DNA of 64,000 nt from Bacteroidia bacterium (GTDB lineage Bacteria > Bacteroidota > Bacteroidia > AKYH767-A > OLB10), in assembly GCA_016788065.1 (NCBI GenBank), contig JAEUTI010000006.1, forward strand, positions 51,016 to 115,015, given 5' to 3'. A program made the translations under genes and the position numbers. The notes beneath the pieces are model-generated. The model had not been told where the DNA came from. It saw only the letters and a list, made by a program, of their open reading frames with translations, and searched no databases. Position 1 is the stretch's first letter. Each line of letters starts with the position of its first letter. Below, piece by piece: positions 59,175-63,615 of the stretch.

Positions 59175-59205
59175 ACCCCGTATTTTTCCCCCGTATTTAT
59201 ACCTG
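59175..59205. promoter_or_regulatory. Tandem CCCCGTATTT element in the divergent region
   Basis: Two direct copies of CCCCGTATTT start at about 59176 and 59189, 13 bp apart, and the second is extended to CCCCCGTATTTATACC. The reverse complement of the extended form also occurs near 3404-3420. Its position, ~200 bp upstream of the first precursor peptide and ~70 bp from the divergent gene, makes it a candidate operator. The promoter of the peptides may be TAATTTTAC at 59375-59383, a weak -7 match. Confidence 0.4.
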
Positions 59206-59404
59206 CCCGAAAAGCTGCATTGGAGAAAATCCATCCTCATTTACAGGGAGATCATAGAAAAGTTAACTGTATTATTGTCTTTTAAGGCTACATTCAAAGT
59301 CTTATCTATTTGATTTTCCATGTATTACGGTTACATACCACCAAAGTAGTATGGAAGTCCCTTCGCTGGTTACGTAATTTTACTTCATCAAAAACAACAA
59401 CACC

Positions 59405-59563
59405 ATGATAACAGAAACATTAATGATCTTCCTCACAACAGTAATGAGTATGAATCAACCGGCAGAAATAAATAAATCCTCGGTAAAACAACAAACAGAA
59501 GTTAAACAAGCAATTACCGAAACAGCGCCTGCATTGCTCAGAGGAGGATGGGACCGTAACTAA
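59405..59563 (+). CDS. Putative RiPP precursor peptide 1 (ends GGWDRN)
   Basis: A 52-residue ORF. The leader MITETLMIFLTTVMSMNQ is hydrophobic and shared with the two following ORFs; the middle is polar (KSSVKQQTEVKQ); the end is ALLRGGWDRN. Paralogy with its two neighbours in both ends but not the middle is the pattern of precursor peptides, with a leader recognised by an enzyme and a C-terminal core. It contains no Cys and the terminal residue is Asn. 17 bp separate it from the second precursor. A secreted signal peptide reading is possible, but the hydrophobic stretch lacks an N-terminal positive charge. Confidence 0.8.
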   Translation: MITETLMIFLTTVMSMNQPAEINKSSVKQQTEVKQAITETAPALLRGGWDRN

Positions 59564-59580
59564 TACTAAAAATAGCAGCC

Positions 59581-59748
59581 ATGATCACAGAATCACTATT
59601 ACTGTTCCTTACTTCAATAATCAGTTTAAACCAGCCAGCAACGGCTGAAAAAAAGGAAGTAATTCATCCTGAAAAACAAATAGAAATTGTTCAAACACGC
59701 ACTGCCTCAAATTCAACCGGAATGCGCGGTGGCTGGGATCACAACTAA
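59581..59748 (+). CDS. Putative RiPP precursor peptide 2 (ends GGWDHN)
   Basis: A 55-residue ORF: MITESLLLFLTSIISLNQ leader, variable polar middle (EKKEVIHPEKQIEIVQ), C-terminus TGMRGGWDHN. The leader matches precursor 1 at M-I-T-E, the F-L-T triplet, the Ser at 15 and N-Q-P-A at 17-20. The third-base differences from its neighbours are numerous, so the duplication is old and the two ends have been kept by selection. Same strand and spacing as the other precursors. Confidence 0.8.
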   Translation: MITESLLLFLTSIISLNQPATAEKKEVIHPEKQIEIVQTRTASNSTGMRGGWDHN

Positions 59749-59809
59749 AATCTGATCTAAAAGTCAAATCACTACAACGAATCAATTCTAATATTTAAAA
59801 CAAATTGTT

Positions 59810-59983
59810 ATGATATCTGAAACTTTAATTATCTTTCTCACATCGGTGATGAGCTTGAATTCAATTCCCGAAAAGAGTAAAAAAGAACTGGAAAATAATC
59901 AACAACAAAATGGCAAAGCCCGTTCCGAACAACATCATCCCATAACTAATAATCAAAAGGGAGGCGGCTGGGACTACAATTGA
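59810..59983 (+). CDS. Putative RiPP precursor peptide 3 (ends GGWDYN)
   Basis: A 57-residue ORF: MISETLIIFLTSVMSLNS leader, very polar Asn/Gln/Lys-rich middle (ELENNQQQNGKARSEQHH), C-terminus NNQKGGGWDYN. The stop codon is followed after four bases by the ATG of the ThiF-like gene, so translation is probably coupled. As in precursors 1 and 2 the tail is Gly-Gly-Trp-Asp-x-Asn, with Tyr at the only variable position. Confidence 0.8.
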   Translation: MISETLIIFLTSVMSLNSIPEKSKKELENNQQQNGKARSEQHHPITNNQKGGGWDYN

Positions 59984-59987
59984 TTTT

Positions 59988-61019
59988 ATGTCGAAAAACA
60001 TTCGGATAAAACCCTATTTACACATTCTTGAAAAAGATGGTATTGTATCATTCATTAAGACATTGGATGAATCCATACGTATTCCTTCCGGAAAAATGAT
60101 TGACACCATTGTGTCTGTTATCCAGCAAAACTCAAACTATGATTCTGTTTGCGATGAACTAAGTAAGCACCTAAGCATAACGCTTCAAGAAGCAGAGCTG
60201 TTACTTGGTAAGTTTATTGAACTTGGAGTTTTAGAATGGGTTGATACAGTTAATCAAAATGAACCTGGTCGCTATCACCGACAGCAACTACTATTTGACA
60301 CTATAGCTCCTGTGGCAGATTCATCGACTGATCCATACCAACATAAACTATCAGATACACATATCATGATCCTTGGCATTGGTGGAATAGGCAACTATAT
60401 GGCTATGGCCTTTGCTGCTGCCGGAGTAGGAAAAATAACACTGGTTGACTTTGATGTGGTAGAATTATCAAATTTAAACAGACAAATTCTTTTCAGAGAA
60501 ATTGACATAGGAAAATCAAAAATAGCATCCGCAATAGCACACTTAAATTCATTAAACAGCACTATTGAACTGAAAGGTATTGAGACCAAAGTTCATTCTC
60601 AGGAAGAATTAGATATTCTGATTAATGATAACGGGCCAGTAAATTACCTGGTATTATCTGCAGACCATCCACCTCATCTGGTATTATGGGCCTCTGCCTT
60701 GTGTCAAAAGCATCAATTTAAATATGTAAAATGTGGCTACATGGCTTTTCAGGGATTGGTTGGCCCGTTGCTGGGGCCACAAACTAAACGCTACGAAGAA
60801 TTATTTGAATCGTGGAAAACAGTTATAGAAGCTCAACCGAAACATTTTAAATCACACAACGATTCATATATTGCACCAAGCATGGCAGCAACGAATGCCA
60901 TCCTGGCAAATATTGCAGCATTAGAAATTATCAAGGATATAACTGGCATAGCTTCATCAGCACTTACTGAGAAAAGACTGCTAGTTGATTTGAAAACAAT
61001 GGAAATATCATTCGGTTAA
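59988..61019 (+). CDS. ThiF/MccB-like adenylating enzyme with N-terminal peptide-recognition domain
   Basis: The 343-residue protein has two parts. Residues ~1-85 (strands IRIKPYLHILEKDG, SIRIPSG, then helices ending LLGKFIELGVLEW) have the winged-helix pattern of PqqD/RRE domains that bind RiPP leaders, as in MccB. Residues ~94-343 are an E1/ThiF fold: RYHRQQLLF, the ATP loop LGIGGIG (G130-G135), D154/D156 in LVDFDVVEL, SNLNRQ (161-166), K176 in GKSK and D226 in SADHP. The CxxC zinc pairs of MoeB and ThiF are absent (only C55, C239, C249). Relatives adenylate a peptide C-terminus; MccB does so at Asn. It lies four bases after precursor 3 and 12 bp before the kinase. Confidence 0.85.
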   Translation: MSKNIRIKPYLHILEKDGIVSFIKTLDESIRIPSGKMIDTIVSVIQQNSNYDSVCDELSKHLSITLQEAELLLGKFIELGVLEWVDTVNQNEPGRYHRQQLLFDTIAPVADSSTDPYQHKLSDTHIMILGIGGIGNYMAMAFAAAGVGKITLVDFDVVELSNLNRQILFREIDIGKSKIASAIAHLNSLNSTIELKGIETKVHSQEELDILINDNGPVNYLVLSADHPPHLVLWASALCQKHQFKYVKCGYMAFQGLVGPLLGPQTKRYEELFESWKTVIEAQPKHFKSHNDSYIAPSMAATNAILANIAALEIIKDITGIASSALTEKRLLVDLKTMEISFG

Positions 61020-61031
61020 AACCATAATATT

Positions 61032-62921
61032 ATGCATCAGAATCGACTGAAGAAATTTATTCTATCTATAGTTACGCTGACTTTTGTCTTAAGTCACTTT
61101 GTATTCTTATCTGTTGCGCAAATTCCATCGCCAGGAGCGGGAAACACCAATCCTGATGCAATTGATACGGCTTATTACAAAGATCAAATTCGAATAGCAG
61201 GGGATTTCGTGAATGCGTCGGAATTTGACAGTTGTCTGATGATTTGCAATGGCAATGTAACAGAACTGACGAAAAACTTAAAAGCTTTCAAAAATGAAAA
61301 AACACTGGAATACATTAATAAATACCTGATGCATTTTTACAAATTAAGAGGTATTTCATATCAATTATTGTCCAAATATCCGGAATCTCTTAAAGAGCAG
61401 CAGCTGTATTTGAAACAGGCAGAAAAAATTAATAGCATTAAAGACATTGGAGCTGCGTATACTTACATCGCCTACACCCATCGGGAGATGGAGGATTACA
61501 AAACAGCCTTGCAGTATAATTCAAAAGCAATATCGATTTTACAAAACACTCCTTACCGAGGCAGTTATGCCAATGCCCTTTGCGGGAAAAGTACACTATA
61601 TTATGATTTAGATCTGAGCATCGACAGTGCCATGCAATTTTTACAGGAGGGCTTGAAAATATATAAAGAAGTTGGAGACTATAATAACTATACGAATGGG
61701 GTTTTAAGCTTATGCGAACAAAAATTCAAGGCCAACAAGCAGCAAGATTGTAGCGTATGGCTGGCGAGTATATCCGAATATATCAATGAATTTGAAAATC
61801 CTGCGCAACAAGCTCAGTATTACGCTTATTTAGGAAGGGTAGAATTTGAAAAAGGTAATATTAAAGCAGCTTCAAAACATTTTCAAACCGGGTATGATTA
61901 CGCCAAAGTATCAGAAAATGCTTATAACATGTTCGGCACTTCAAAATATATTGCTCTGAGCATGGCTGCTTCGGGACAATATGCAGAATCAATTAAAATG
62001 ATTGATAAGTGTGTTGATCACTATTCAGATGATATTAACACTGAAAAAGCAAGAGAACTAAATTCCATTTCACTAAAATTTGAATTTGAGAAAGAAAAGG
62101 AATTCCAAAAGGCTGAATTTGCAAAGCAGGCTGCTGTTGCTGAAGAAAAGGTAAAGCGAACGACGTTGATCCGAAATGTAGCAATCGCAGGATTAGCTTT
62201 TGTAATTGCTGTGGCAGTTATTTTATTCCGATTAAATAAAAAACTTCGAATATCATATACTAAGTTACATGAAACGCAGGCGACGCTGGTAATGACCGAA
62301 AAGCAACGTGCAGAACAACATGTCAGAGTAAATATAGCAAGAGATATTCATGATGAACTTGGTTCTGGTTTAACACGTATTACCATGCTCAGTGGATTAG
62401 CACGTAAAAAATTGCACAGTCAACCGGAGGCAGTAGATGAATCACTTTCTAAAATTACACAGTACTCCCGTCAGGTTAGTGCATCTTTAAATGAAATTGT
62501 CTGGGCCGTGAACCCTCAAAGTGATACTATTGAAGGTCTGGGGACGTATATGAAAACCTATGCACAAAAGTATTTAGATGATATAGGAATTTCCTATCAG
62601 TTGCATTTCCCCGAAAAATATGAATCGATTCCATTAGATCCGGAAAAGCGGAGAAATATATTCTTAATCCTCAAGGAATCGCTTAACAATGCAGCAAAAT
62701 ATTCGAATGCAACTGAAATTATCATAAATTTAAATATTACAGGAAATATTCTGGAGTTGATTATTTCAGACAATGGAATTGGTATGGATACCGGAATTAC
62801 CTCAACCGGCAATGGGTTGAATAATATGAATCATCGAATGGCTCAAATAGGTTTTAACTATACCATTGAATCTGAGCCTGACAAAGGTTGTACTATAAAA
62901 GTTGACGGAAAATTATTCTGA
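61032..62921 (+). CDS. TPR-sensor histidine kinase (HisKA_3)
   Basis: The 629-residue protein has an N-terminal signal/anchor (to ~LSVAQ) and an extracytoplasmic TPR-like helical domain (~35-350; e.g. AAYTYIAYTHREMEDYKTAL, YYAYLGRVEFEKGNIKAASKHF). A transmembrane helix (~378-399, NVAIAGLAFVIAVAVILF), a coiled coil, a HisKA_3 region with phospho-His in ARDIHDELGSGL (~439) and a HATPase domain (KESLNNAAKYSN, SDNGIGMD, GNGLNNMNHRM) complete it. TPR sensors of this kind usually bind peptides or proteins, fitting a role in sensing the products of the adjacent precursors. It is the second gene in a tight operon, 8 bp from the regulator. Confidence 0.85.
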   Translation: MHQNRLKKFILSIVTLTFVLSHFVFLSVAQIPSPGAGNTNPDAIDTAYYKDQIRIAGDFVNASEFDSCLMICNGNVTELTKNLKAFKNEKTLEYINKYLMHFYKLRGISYQLLSKYPESLKEQQLYLKQAEKINSIKDIGAAYTYIAYTHREMEDYKTALQYNSKAISILQNTPYRGSYANALCGKSTLYYDLDLSIDSAMQFLQEGLKIYKEVGDYNNYTNGVLSLCEQKFKANKQQDCSVWLASISEYINEFENPAQQAQYYAYLGRVEFEKGNIKAASKHFQTGYDYAKVSENAYNMFGTSKYIALSMAASGQYAESIKMIDKCVDHYSDDINTEKARELNSISLKFEFEKEKEFQKAEFAKQAAVAEEKVKRTTLIRNVAIAGLAFVIAVAVILFRLNKKLRISYTKLHETQATLVMTEKQRAEQHVRVNIARDIHDELGSGLTRITMLSGLARKKLHSQPEAVDESLSKITQYSRQVSASLNEIVWAVNPQSDTIEGLGTYMKTYAQKYLDDIGISYQLHFPEKYESIPLDPEKRRNIFLILKESLNNAAKYSNATEIIINLNITGNILELIISDNGIGMDTGITSTGNGLNNMNHRMAQIGFNYTIESEPDKGCTIKVDGKLF

Positions 62922-62929
62922 CTAGCAGT

Positions 62930-63565
62930 ATGAAAAAGATCAAAGTAGTTATAGTAGAAGATGACCAGGAGATAAGAAAACTCGTGGAGGAGATTTTGTC
63001 TTATGAAGACGATATAGAATTCGTCAGATCCTATAGTAATGGGGAGAATTTTCTTAAGGCTTTCAATGACATAACATGTGATGTTGTATTAATGGATATA
63101 AATATGCCGGGTAAAAATGGCATTGAAGTTATTGCAGAAGCTAAACCCAAACGACCTGAAGTACAGTTTTTAATAAGTACTGTTTTTGAAAACCCCCAAT
63201 ATATTTTTAACGCTTTATGCAGTGGAGCAACCGGCTACCTTATAAAAAATACTACCGGTGATCATTTGGTTGCGGCCATCCGTGAAGTTATGAATGGTGG
63301 TTCGCCCATGAGTACGCAAATTGCGCGATTGGTAGTAAGTTCATTTACAGCTAAGCCTACGGGAGGAGTACATGATGGTCAGCTTACTACACGGGAAAAA
63401 GAAATTCTGGATTTACTTGCCGGAGGATTAATGTACAAAGAAATTGCTGCCAGAAAGAACATTAGTGTGGAAACTGTGCGTAAACATGCAAGAAACATAT
63501 ACGAAAAACTGCAGGTAACTACACGAATGGAAGCCATTCAAAAAGTGTACCCAAAAGGCCAATAA
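62930..63565 (+). CDS. NarL/LuxR-type response regulator
   Basis: The 211-residue protein has a receiver domain with VEDDQE, phospho-acceptor D56 in VLMDINMPG and the conserved K in YLIKNTTGD, then a LuxR-type HTH (TTREKEILDLLAGGLMYKEIAARKN, VETVRKHARNIYEKL). It lies 8 bp after the kinase and is certainly its partner. The layout is close to that of the regulator at 30639, but this pair is linked to the peptide genes. It ends in a strong terminator. Confidence 0.9.
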   Translation: MKKIKVVIVEDDQEIRKLVEEILSYEDDIEFVRSYSNGENFLKAFNDITCDVVLMDINMPGKNGIEVIAEAKPKRPEVQFLISTVFENPQYIFNALCSGATGYLIKNTTGDHLVAAIREVMNGGSPMSTQIARLVVSSFTAKPTGGVHDGQLTTREKEILDLLAGGLMYKEIAARKNISVETVRKHARNIYEKLQVTTRMEAIQKVYPKGQ

Positions 63566-63598
63566 AAAAAAGGCGGCAGAAAAATCTGCCGCCTTTTT
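63566..63598. terminator. Bidirectional terminator
   Basis: AAAGGCGGCAGA, AAAA, TCTGCCGCCTTT with A and T runs on either side, between the response regulator and the convergent T9SS gene. It marks the end of the peptide operon. Confidence 0.9.
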
Positions 63599-63615
63599 AG
63601 TTAACCATTTTTACT

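What the first reader, a model, noticed from the sequence alone, without database searches (positions are those of the whole stretch)
59405..63565. Candidate new Bacteroidota peptide system: three GGWDxN precursors, MccB-like enzyme, TPR kinase and regulator
Seen in sequence: three tandem 52-57 residue ORFs share a leader (M-I-[TS]-E-[TS]-L-x-x-F-L-T) and a C-terminus GGWDxN but differ in the middle; the third ends four bases before a ThiF-fold enzyme gene, which is followed at 12 and 8 bp by a histidine kinase and response regulator. Established: MccB in microcin C biosynthesis is a ThiF-like enzyme with an N-terminal peptide-binding domain that adenylates the C-terminal Asn of MccA. All three precursors here end in Asn. 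Inference: the enzyme modifies the C-terminal Asn, giving a peptide-nucleotide or related product, and the kinase senses the product or its target, as antibiotic or signal. I know of no described system with these peptides and this gene order.
Basis: partly seen in the sequence, partly recalled or inferred. Interest (0 to 1): 0.93.

Follow-up and report, generated by a model that had tools for sequence, protein, structure and literature searches.

The report
Tryptophan-tailed peptide operon in Bacteroidota
A Bacteroidota bacterium carries a gene cluster with three small peptides that end in nearly the same tryptophan-containing tail, next to an enzyme predicted to activate that tail and likely to close it into a small ring, and a sensor-regulator pair that would switch the genes on, so the product may be a new bacterial signal or antibiotic.

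Summary
In detail: three tandem ORFs (52, 55, 57 aa) share a leader and end GGWDRN, GGWDHN, GGWDYN, followed by a 343-aa ThiF-like enzyme, a TPR histidine kinase and a LuxR-type regulator. The peptides look like real genes: dN/dS 0.09 against a same-genus locus, a GGWDxN ORF upstream of all 6 family enzymes with readable upstream DNA, and 56 database hits beyond the query rows with W at -4 (56 of 56), D at -3 and N at the end (55 of 56 each). By predicted fold the enzyme is an RRE-fused ThiF-like adenylyltransferase; MccB is its closest solved structure. A palindrome lies 51-53 bp upstream of the first peptide in the three loci that carry kinase and regulator. The chemistry is untested. McC-like precursors keep no such Trp, the family lacks MccB's CxxC pairs, and no exporter was recognised beside it. 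I favour a Trp-Asn ring (0.40) over peptide-AMP (0.33). New variant of a known kind.

The parts
59336..59351 (+). Palindrome TACCACCAAAGTAGTA, candidate binding site of the cluster's response regulator, 53 bp upstream of the first peptide
   Evidence: same site 53 bp (L005) and 51 bp (L006, perfect palindrome) upstream of the first peptide; exact matches in 42 genomes of the order are these three only; binding is inferred
59405..59563 (+). Precursor peptide 1, 52 aa, ends LLRGGWDRN
59581..59748 (+). Precursor peptide 2, 55 aa, ends GMRGGWDHN
59810..59983 (+). Precursor peptide 3, 57 aa, ends QKGGGWDYN
59988..61019 (+). RRE-fused ThiF-like adenylyltransferase, 343 aa
   Evidence: PF00899 1.9e-42; closest solved structure MccB by sequence and predicted fold; G130 G132 G133 G135 D154 D156 R165 Q166 K178 D226 invariant in 27 of 27 rows
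59988..60245 (+). RRE-like domain of that enzyme, residues 1-86
   Evidence: Predicted alone, pLDDT 87, strands then three helices; nearly all leading structural matches are RiPP enzymes, among them the PbtF RRE
61032..62921 (+). Histidine kinase: N-terminal hydrophobic segment, TPR region, second hydrophobic segment 383-401, HisKA_3 and HATPase_c
   Evidence: Pfam, hydropathy
62930..63565 (+). Response regulator with LuxR-type DNA-binding domain
   Evidence: Response_reg and GerE; 99.5% identical in L005, dN 0.004 / dS 0.62
63570..63599 (+). Hairpin followed by a T run just after the regulator, terminator-like
   Evidence: Read by eye in the sequence; no scan was run

Best explanation
This gene cluster likely makes a ribosomal, modified peptide (RiPP): its RRE-fused ThiF-like enzyme is predicted to adenylate the C-terminal Asn of three GGWDxN precursors and likely to join it to the indole nitrogen of the fixed Trp at -4, giving a four-residue ring. 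Shown: the three conserved precursors, the strict conservation of the tail, and an enzyme family with invariant nucleotide-site residues; predicted by model: its RRE-plus-adenylation fold. Inferred: the RRE would hold the conserved hydrophobic leader; ATP would activate the Asn carboxylate; the Trp indole would attack and release AMP (net -18 Da), as IndF does on ...NWYFI. The variable residue at -2 (R, H, Y here) would give one ring per precursor. The double Gly before the Trp would be a flexible link or a cleavage site for a protease encoded elsewhere. The kinase, with its TPR region between two hydrophobic segments and so probably outside the inner membrane, would sense the product or its effect; the regulator would bind the palindrome upstream of the first peptide and set transcription of the cluster.
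For: Tail: in 62 hits (6 of them identical to query rows) W at -4 62, D at -3 61, N at -1 61, G at -5 61, G at -6 62, -2 variable; leader conserved, middle not. IndA has Trp at -4 of a C-terminal Ile and IndF makes the Trp-indole to C-terminus amide, shown by NMR (PMC12150305, parts 1 and 2 of 3 read); EnfA ends WWIVI, also Trp at -4, and is cyclised by a ThiF-like enzyme (PMC12250964 section 5). Enzyme: RRE-like domain, MccB/PaaA-like fold, ten nucleotide-site residues 27 of 27. Linkage: GGWDxN ORF upstream in 6 of 6 family loci that show upstream DNA (window, L005, L006, L007, L008, L009); 6 of 36 family ThiF proteins share a longest-contig length with precursor hits, 0 of 84 other ThiF hits do. 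Regulation: kinase (E 1e-60 or better) in 3 of 3 ThiF genomes and 1 of 39 others of the order; palindrome at 51-53 bp in the three loci with kinase and regulator, and in one-mismatch form near related regulators in L028, L029, L034, L036.
Against: No chemistry was tested. The Asn-ended ThiF substrates whose assays appear in the passages I read are nucleotidylated, and MccB, not a cyclase, is the closest solved structure; IndF, EnfB and GrcB sequences were not in hand, so closeness to them was not measured. IndF's cluster has a protease and a transporter; none was recognised here. The trees give the family its own clade, tied firmly to no characterised enzyme. With up to one mismatch the palindrome pattern is no commoner in the 42 genomes than its reversed control (28 against 39 sites). 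The window ends at the contig end, so genes further downstream are unseen. Similar GGWDxN stretches occur inside other proteins followed by more residues, which a C-terminal reaction does not explain.
Confidence: 0.4

Rival explanations
1. Microcin-C-like peptide-nucleotide: the enzyme would activate the C-terminal Asn, form a succinimide, and attach AMP through an N-P bond, as MccB does; the product would be a Trojan-horse antibiotic or a signal.
Against: McC-like precursors of the major clade share only Met and Asn, here W, D and GG are fixed too; 0 of 27 family enzymes have a CxxC, E. coli MccB and the MccB-like L010 have two each (sequences); no exporter was recognised beside the cluster, and the GNAT gene of L006 has no counterpart recognised in the other loci; not in the MccB clade in the tree, though one clade is not rejected (AU p 0.159).
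Confidence: 0.33
2. Other fate of the activated C-terminus: a backbone imide (as reported for EnfB), a ring to the Asp side chain or leader, amidation, a stable C-terminal succinimide, or conjugation to another molecule in the manner of ubiquitin activation.
For: ThiF-like enzymes adenylate and then differ in the nucleophile (PMC12250964, sections read); MccB with a Gly-ended substrate passes the acyl group to added thiols (PMC13255007, passages); Asp at -3 is as fixed as Asn.
Against: None of these gives a clear role to a Trp fixed at one distance from the end; no E2-like or protease gene was recognised nearby by reading ORFs and Pfam on some of them.
Confidence: 0.2
3. The peptides are not substrates: small membrane or toxin-like proteins that happen to lie beside a ThiF gene.
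For: Hydrophobic first 15-18 residues, mostly with net charge -1 or 0.
Against: Tail and enzyme co-occur in 6 of 6 readable loci and in the same 2 of 395 sampled genomes of the class; the four other pattern matches there lie in frames of 6 to 17 codons; RRE-like domain on the enzyme.
Confidence: 0.05

Closest known systems
Microcin C system (MccA/MccB)
   Same: RRE plus ThiF-like adenylation domain over the full length; precursor ends in Asn; precursor gene directly before the enzyme gene (MRTGNAN ORF found before mccB in L019)
   Different: Precursors mostly 50-59 aa with fixed GGWD and a conserved leader, three in the window; enzyme without CxxC pairs; no exporter recognised; kinase and regulator in three of the loci
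Ind system of Streptococcus (IndA/IndF, indolylamide)
   Same: RRE-ThiF enzyme; Trp exactly at -4 of the C-terminal residue
   Different: C-terminal Ile and WYF context in IndA, Asn and D-x here; Ind has peptidase and transporter; IndF sequence not compared
Enterofaecin (EnfA/EnfB)
   Same: RRE-ThiF enzyme, precursor with Trp at -4, cyclisation reported
   Different: Product described as a macrocyclic imide in the review, exact structure called open in PMC12150305; EnfA 21 aa ending WWIVI
Pantocin A (PaaP/PaaA)
   Different: PaaA acts on internal Glu residues with a follower peptide, not on the C-terminus
AclA of Tenacibaculum discolor (PDB 9egb, with substrate)
   Different: 265 aa, aligned only to model residues 107-338, so no N-terminal RRE matched; its paper is not held; that it N-acylates an indole is recalled, from no call

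Membership tests
RiPPs made by RRE-fused ThiF-like adenylyltransferases | ThiF (PF00899) adenylation domain with intact nucleotide site | tested here: met
   PF00899 1.9e-42, 145.5 bits against cut-off 28.1; ten site residues 27 of 27; which residues bind ATP is taken from PMC12250964 in part (Arg, Lys, Asp of EnfB) and otherwise recalled
[quoted passage not shown]
   Predicted strands 4-7, 12-16, 19-23, 29-33 then three helices; matches to RiPP enzymes, one titled RRE. A model, not a measured structure; leader binding not testable here
RiPPs made by RRE-fused ThiF-like adenylyltransferases | Conserved precursor gene beside the enzyme gene | tested here: met
   6 of 6 family loci with readable upstream DNA
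RiPPs made by RRE-fused ThiF-like adenylyltransferases | ATP-dependent change at the precursor | not testable with these tools
   Needs an enzyme assay
Microcin C-like (MccB) systems | Precursor ends in Asn | tested here: met
   61 of 62 hits; the exception P0130 ends GGWERK, longest contig 547 bases
Microcin C-like (MccB) systems | Enzyme in the MccB clade | tested here: inconclusive
   Own clade 100/96; E. coli MccB with L010 and P0038 98/96 apart; union of family, MccB and L010 not rejected, AU p 0.159
Microcin C-like (MccB) systems | Two CxxC pairs as in E. coli MccB and L010 (that they are defining, and their metal role, is recalled) | tested here: not met
   0 of 27 family rows have any CxxC
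Microcin C-like (MccB) systems | Exporter gene (MccC-type) in the cluster | tested here: not met
   None adjacent in window and L005-L008 by reading ORFs and Pfam on 14 ORFs of window and L006-L009; an EamA transporter gene 2 kb downstream in L008 follows other genes; DNA beyond the window's contig end is unseen. L010 has one
Microcin C-like (MccB) systems | N-P linked nucleotide on the Asn | not testable with these tools
   Needs mass spectrometry
Ind-type indolylamide RiPPs | Trp at -4 of the C-terminal residue | tested here: met
   62 of 62; IndA ...NWYFI with W6-I9 bond
Ind-type indolylamide RiPPs | Homology to IndF and its Y228, K256, T298 | not tested
   IndF sequence not in hand; loop lengths make a mapping by numbers unsafe
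Ind-type indolylamide RiPPs | M16 peptidase and transporter in the cluster | tested here: not met
   Neither recognised by reading ORFs and Pfam on some of them; DNA beyond the contig end unseen

The most novel reading that the evidence does not exclude
A peptide signalling system of Bacteroidota: one RRE-ThiF enzyme closes each GGWDxN tail into a Trp-indole-to-Asn ring, the ring peptides are released at the double Gly and sensed outside the cell by the TPR region of the neighbouring kinase, and the regulator, bound to the TACCAC(C/T)AAAGT(A/G)GTA site, switches the cluster on, so that three precursors differing at one ring residue make a small signal code.
Probability: 0.15. Interest if true: 0.85.

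Novelty: new variant of a known kind. Interest (0 to 1): 0.62.

Why it matters
ThiF-like enzymes build very different peptides from one activation step, and what in the substrate decides the outcome is not clear from the papers I read. This family puts two well-marked substrate features, C-terminal Asn (AMP transfer) and Trp at -4 (indole ring), in one peptide, so a single assay would show which one rules. If the product is a signal, it would be a RiPP with its own two-component system in Bacteroidota. I found no description of these peptides: searches of the held library with ThiF, RiPP, Bacteroidetes/Bacteroidota, MccB, E1-like, precursor peptide and indole N-acylation (listings only, beyond the papers cited), and no word starting with Bacteroid or GGW in the 2025 review. 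Most subscription papers and all bioRxiv preprints are outside that library.

Tried and rejected
Chance or annotation artefact: rejected. Ubiquitin-like defence: of 33 PADLOC families matched, the best 25 shown are all E1-E2, on the Rossmann core, best 1.8e-13; rejected because of the RRE-like domain and the precursors. Thiamin or molybdopterin ThiF/MoeB: the 25 NCBIfam matches shown of 46 are all far under cut-off. Phage or plasmid carriage: viral scan, 33 pattern stretches, no relative; phage and plasmid records hold only distant ThiFs, 18 and 377 records, none covering 80% of the query in one place; nucleotide search of plasmids gives one 64-base match. Precursors without the enzyme in the class: four single pattern matches lie in frames of 12, 17, 6 and 9 codons from stop to stop (one search had read only one strand and so missed two of them). 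A direct-repeat site CCCCGTATTT upstream, first searched with a wrong spacing, occurs once in the own genome and in L005 but not L006, so it was not made part of the model. AclA paper and sequence: not found. MccB structure papers: not held. IndF, EnfB and GrcB could not be placed in the tree for want of sequences.

Results against my reading: a second leader-bearing ORF in L008 (7719-7856), and a similar stretch in P0186, lack the GGWDxN tail; P0130 ends GGWERK; a kinase of the same group exists in G034 (80% complete) without a ThiF match and a second one in G030 (L029); with one mismatch allowed the palindrome shows no excess over its control, and 14 of its 28 sites were looked at for a nearby regulator, 8 of these 14 having one. 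The RRE matches are of middling Z (10.1 down to about 7; only one Foldseek match at or under 0.001), and one leading row, BmdC, belongs to a nonribosomal pathway. In one search some genomes had more first-look candidates than were scored.
Full report
What is there. The window (a same-genus record found is titled Bacteroidota bacterium) holds at its right end three tandem ORFs of 52, 55 and 57 aa, then a 343-aa ThiF-like protein, a 629-aa histidine kinase and a 211-aa LuxR-type regulator, with gaps of 4, 12 and 8 bp after the third peptide, the enzyme and the kinase. The window ends at the end of its contig, so nothing is known of what follows; a terminator-like hairpin lies right after the regulator (read by eye).

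The peptides are genes. The tail pattern occurs three times in the 4.26-Mb genome, all here. Between the window and L005 (enzyme 92% identical) the three peptides differ mostly in third codon positions (32 of 42 bases) and pooled dN/dS is 0.033/0.358. A profile of 12 precursors from window, L005, L006, L007 and L008 found 65 proteins up to E 10; 62 have E 0.0043 or lower, 6 of these identical to query rows. In the 62: N at the end 61, D at -3 61, W at -4 62, G at -5 61, G at -6 62, and R/H/L/Y/G/A at -2; in the 56 others: 55, 55, 56, 56, 56. The query already held the tail, so part of this is selection by the search; but sequences without it were also drawn in: P0130 (GGWERK) and, in a second search, P0186, which lacks the tail.

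Peptides and enzyme belong together. Six family loci show DNA upstream of the ThiF gene, the window among them, and all six have a GGWDxN ORF there, including L009 whose enzyme is 36% identical (L009's ORF is open at the contig end; one of L006's three reads GIWDRN). A further locus, L010, is a different thing: an MccB-like enzyme with CxxC pairs followed by an MFS transporter and a GNAT acetyltransferase. In 395 sampled genomes of the class, the two with the enzyme are the two with real tails.

Regulation. The kinase has a hydrophobic segment near residues 10-28 and another at 383-401, with the TPR match between them, which places the TPR region outside the inner membrane if both segments span it (inference). 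In the 42 genomes of the order a kinase at E 1e-60 or better is found in the 3 with the enzyme and in 1 of the 39 without. Upstream of the first peptide lies TACCACCAAAGTAGTA (window, L005) or the perfect palindrome TACCACTAAAGTGGTA (L006), ending 53, 53 and 51 bp before the start codon. Exact matches in the 42 genomes are these three only; with up to one mismatch there are 28 sites against 39 for the reversed pattern, so the loose pattern is not enriched. Related regulator genes (46-70% identical) lie near one-mismatch sites in L028, L029, L034 and L036; of the eight loci L031-L038 two had one. The Saprospiraceae loci L007 and L008, which lack kinase and regulator matches, lack the palindrome too. 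That the regulator binds it is inferred.

How it would work. ThiF-like RiPP enzymes first adenylate a carboxylate and then differ in what attacks it (PMC12250964, named sections read). Two known outcomes compete here. MccB: C-terminal Asn, succinimide, second ATP, N-P bond to AMP; McC-like precursors end in Asn and share little else (PMC6495379, passages), and long ones of 36 and 46 aa are known (PMC7157772, passages). IndF: Trp at -4, indole nitrogen joined to the C-terminal carboxylate, -18 Da, lost with the Trp (PMC12150305). The GGWDxN tail has both the Asn and the Trp at the IndA spacing. I favour the ring because it gives a role to the Trp and to its fixed distance from the end over enzymes as far apart as 36% identity, because the MccB-type CxxC pairs are missing, and because no exporter was recognised and no immunity gene common to the loci (L006 alone has a GNAT gene about 1.1 kb upstream on the other strand), which a toxic peptide-AMP would call for. 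The margin is small (0.40 against 0.33).

What it is like and what it is. It works like a ThiF-like adenylyltransferase RiPP system and meets the tested defining features of that kind. It is not filed as a microcin C system: Asn end met, clade inconclusive, CxxC and exporter not met, the N-P bond untested. It is not filed as an Ind system: Trp spacing met, peptidase and transporter not met, enzyme homology untested. Hence a new variant of a known kind: new tail, several precursors with one enzyme, and a two-component pair in one branch.

Loose ends. A second search with 43 precursors brought precursors with another leader, two named Flavobacteriales (MNPIAFIAFL...RGGWDxN), and, unexpectedly, proteins of 82 to 102 aa with a signal-peptide-like start (by eye), one named Cyanobacteria bacterium DS2.3.42, with two or three internal GGWDxN repeats. 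No Pfam family matches the three proteins scanned. Their relation to the peptides here is open.

Noticed in passing
P0183, P0185, P0194-P0198, P0201-P0203, P0205, P0207: Small proteins with a signal-peptide-like start (by eye; P0196 is named Cyanobacteria bacterium DS2.3.42) carry two or three internal repeats such as RGGWDGN, GGGWDLN, GGWDRN, followed by further residues, often N-L-R-[IV]-S; the same tail letters as the Bacteroidota precursors but not C-terminal. P0208 has RGGWDGNHNEP and GGGWDLNHNEP.
   Followed up: partly
P0184, P0189-P0193, P0199, P0200, P0204, P0206: A second precursor type with a leader like MNPIAFIAFLxGI and a GGWDxN end; P0199 and P0206 are named Flavobacteriales; which enzyme goes with them is unknown.
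   Followed up: no
window 59176-59199 (+), and window 3418 (-): Direct repeat CCCCGTATTT TT CCCCCGTATTT conserved in L005 upstream of the peptides; the 16-mer CCCCCGTATTTATACC recurs near window 3418 on the other strand.
   Followed up: partly
L010:585-3477: MccB-like enzyme with CxxC pairs, an MFS transporter and a GNAT acetyltransferase in a Lac Pavin Proteobacteria MAG: looks like a microcin-C-like cluster.
   Followed up: partly
L022 (Moraxella osloensis plasmid pNP7-2) 1201-5552: Two adjacent ThiF-family genes followed by a gene with ABC and UvrA DNA-binding domain matches, and a small hypothetical protein gene upstream.
   Followed up: no
L017 (Lactiplantibacillus plantarum plasmid) 2416-2669: Repeated DNA with small ORFs upstream of a ThiF-family gene that is followed by an MFS transporter.
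   Followed up: no
L028 and L029: Related TPR kinase and regulator pairs without a ThiF gene alongside, with the palindrome in one-mismatch form nearby.
   Followed up: partly
L008:7719-7856 and P0186: A leader-bearing second ORF without the GGWDxN tail in L008 (Saprospiraceae), and a similar stretch in P0186.
   Followed up: no
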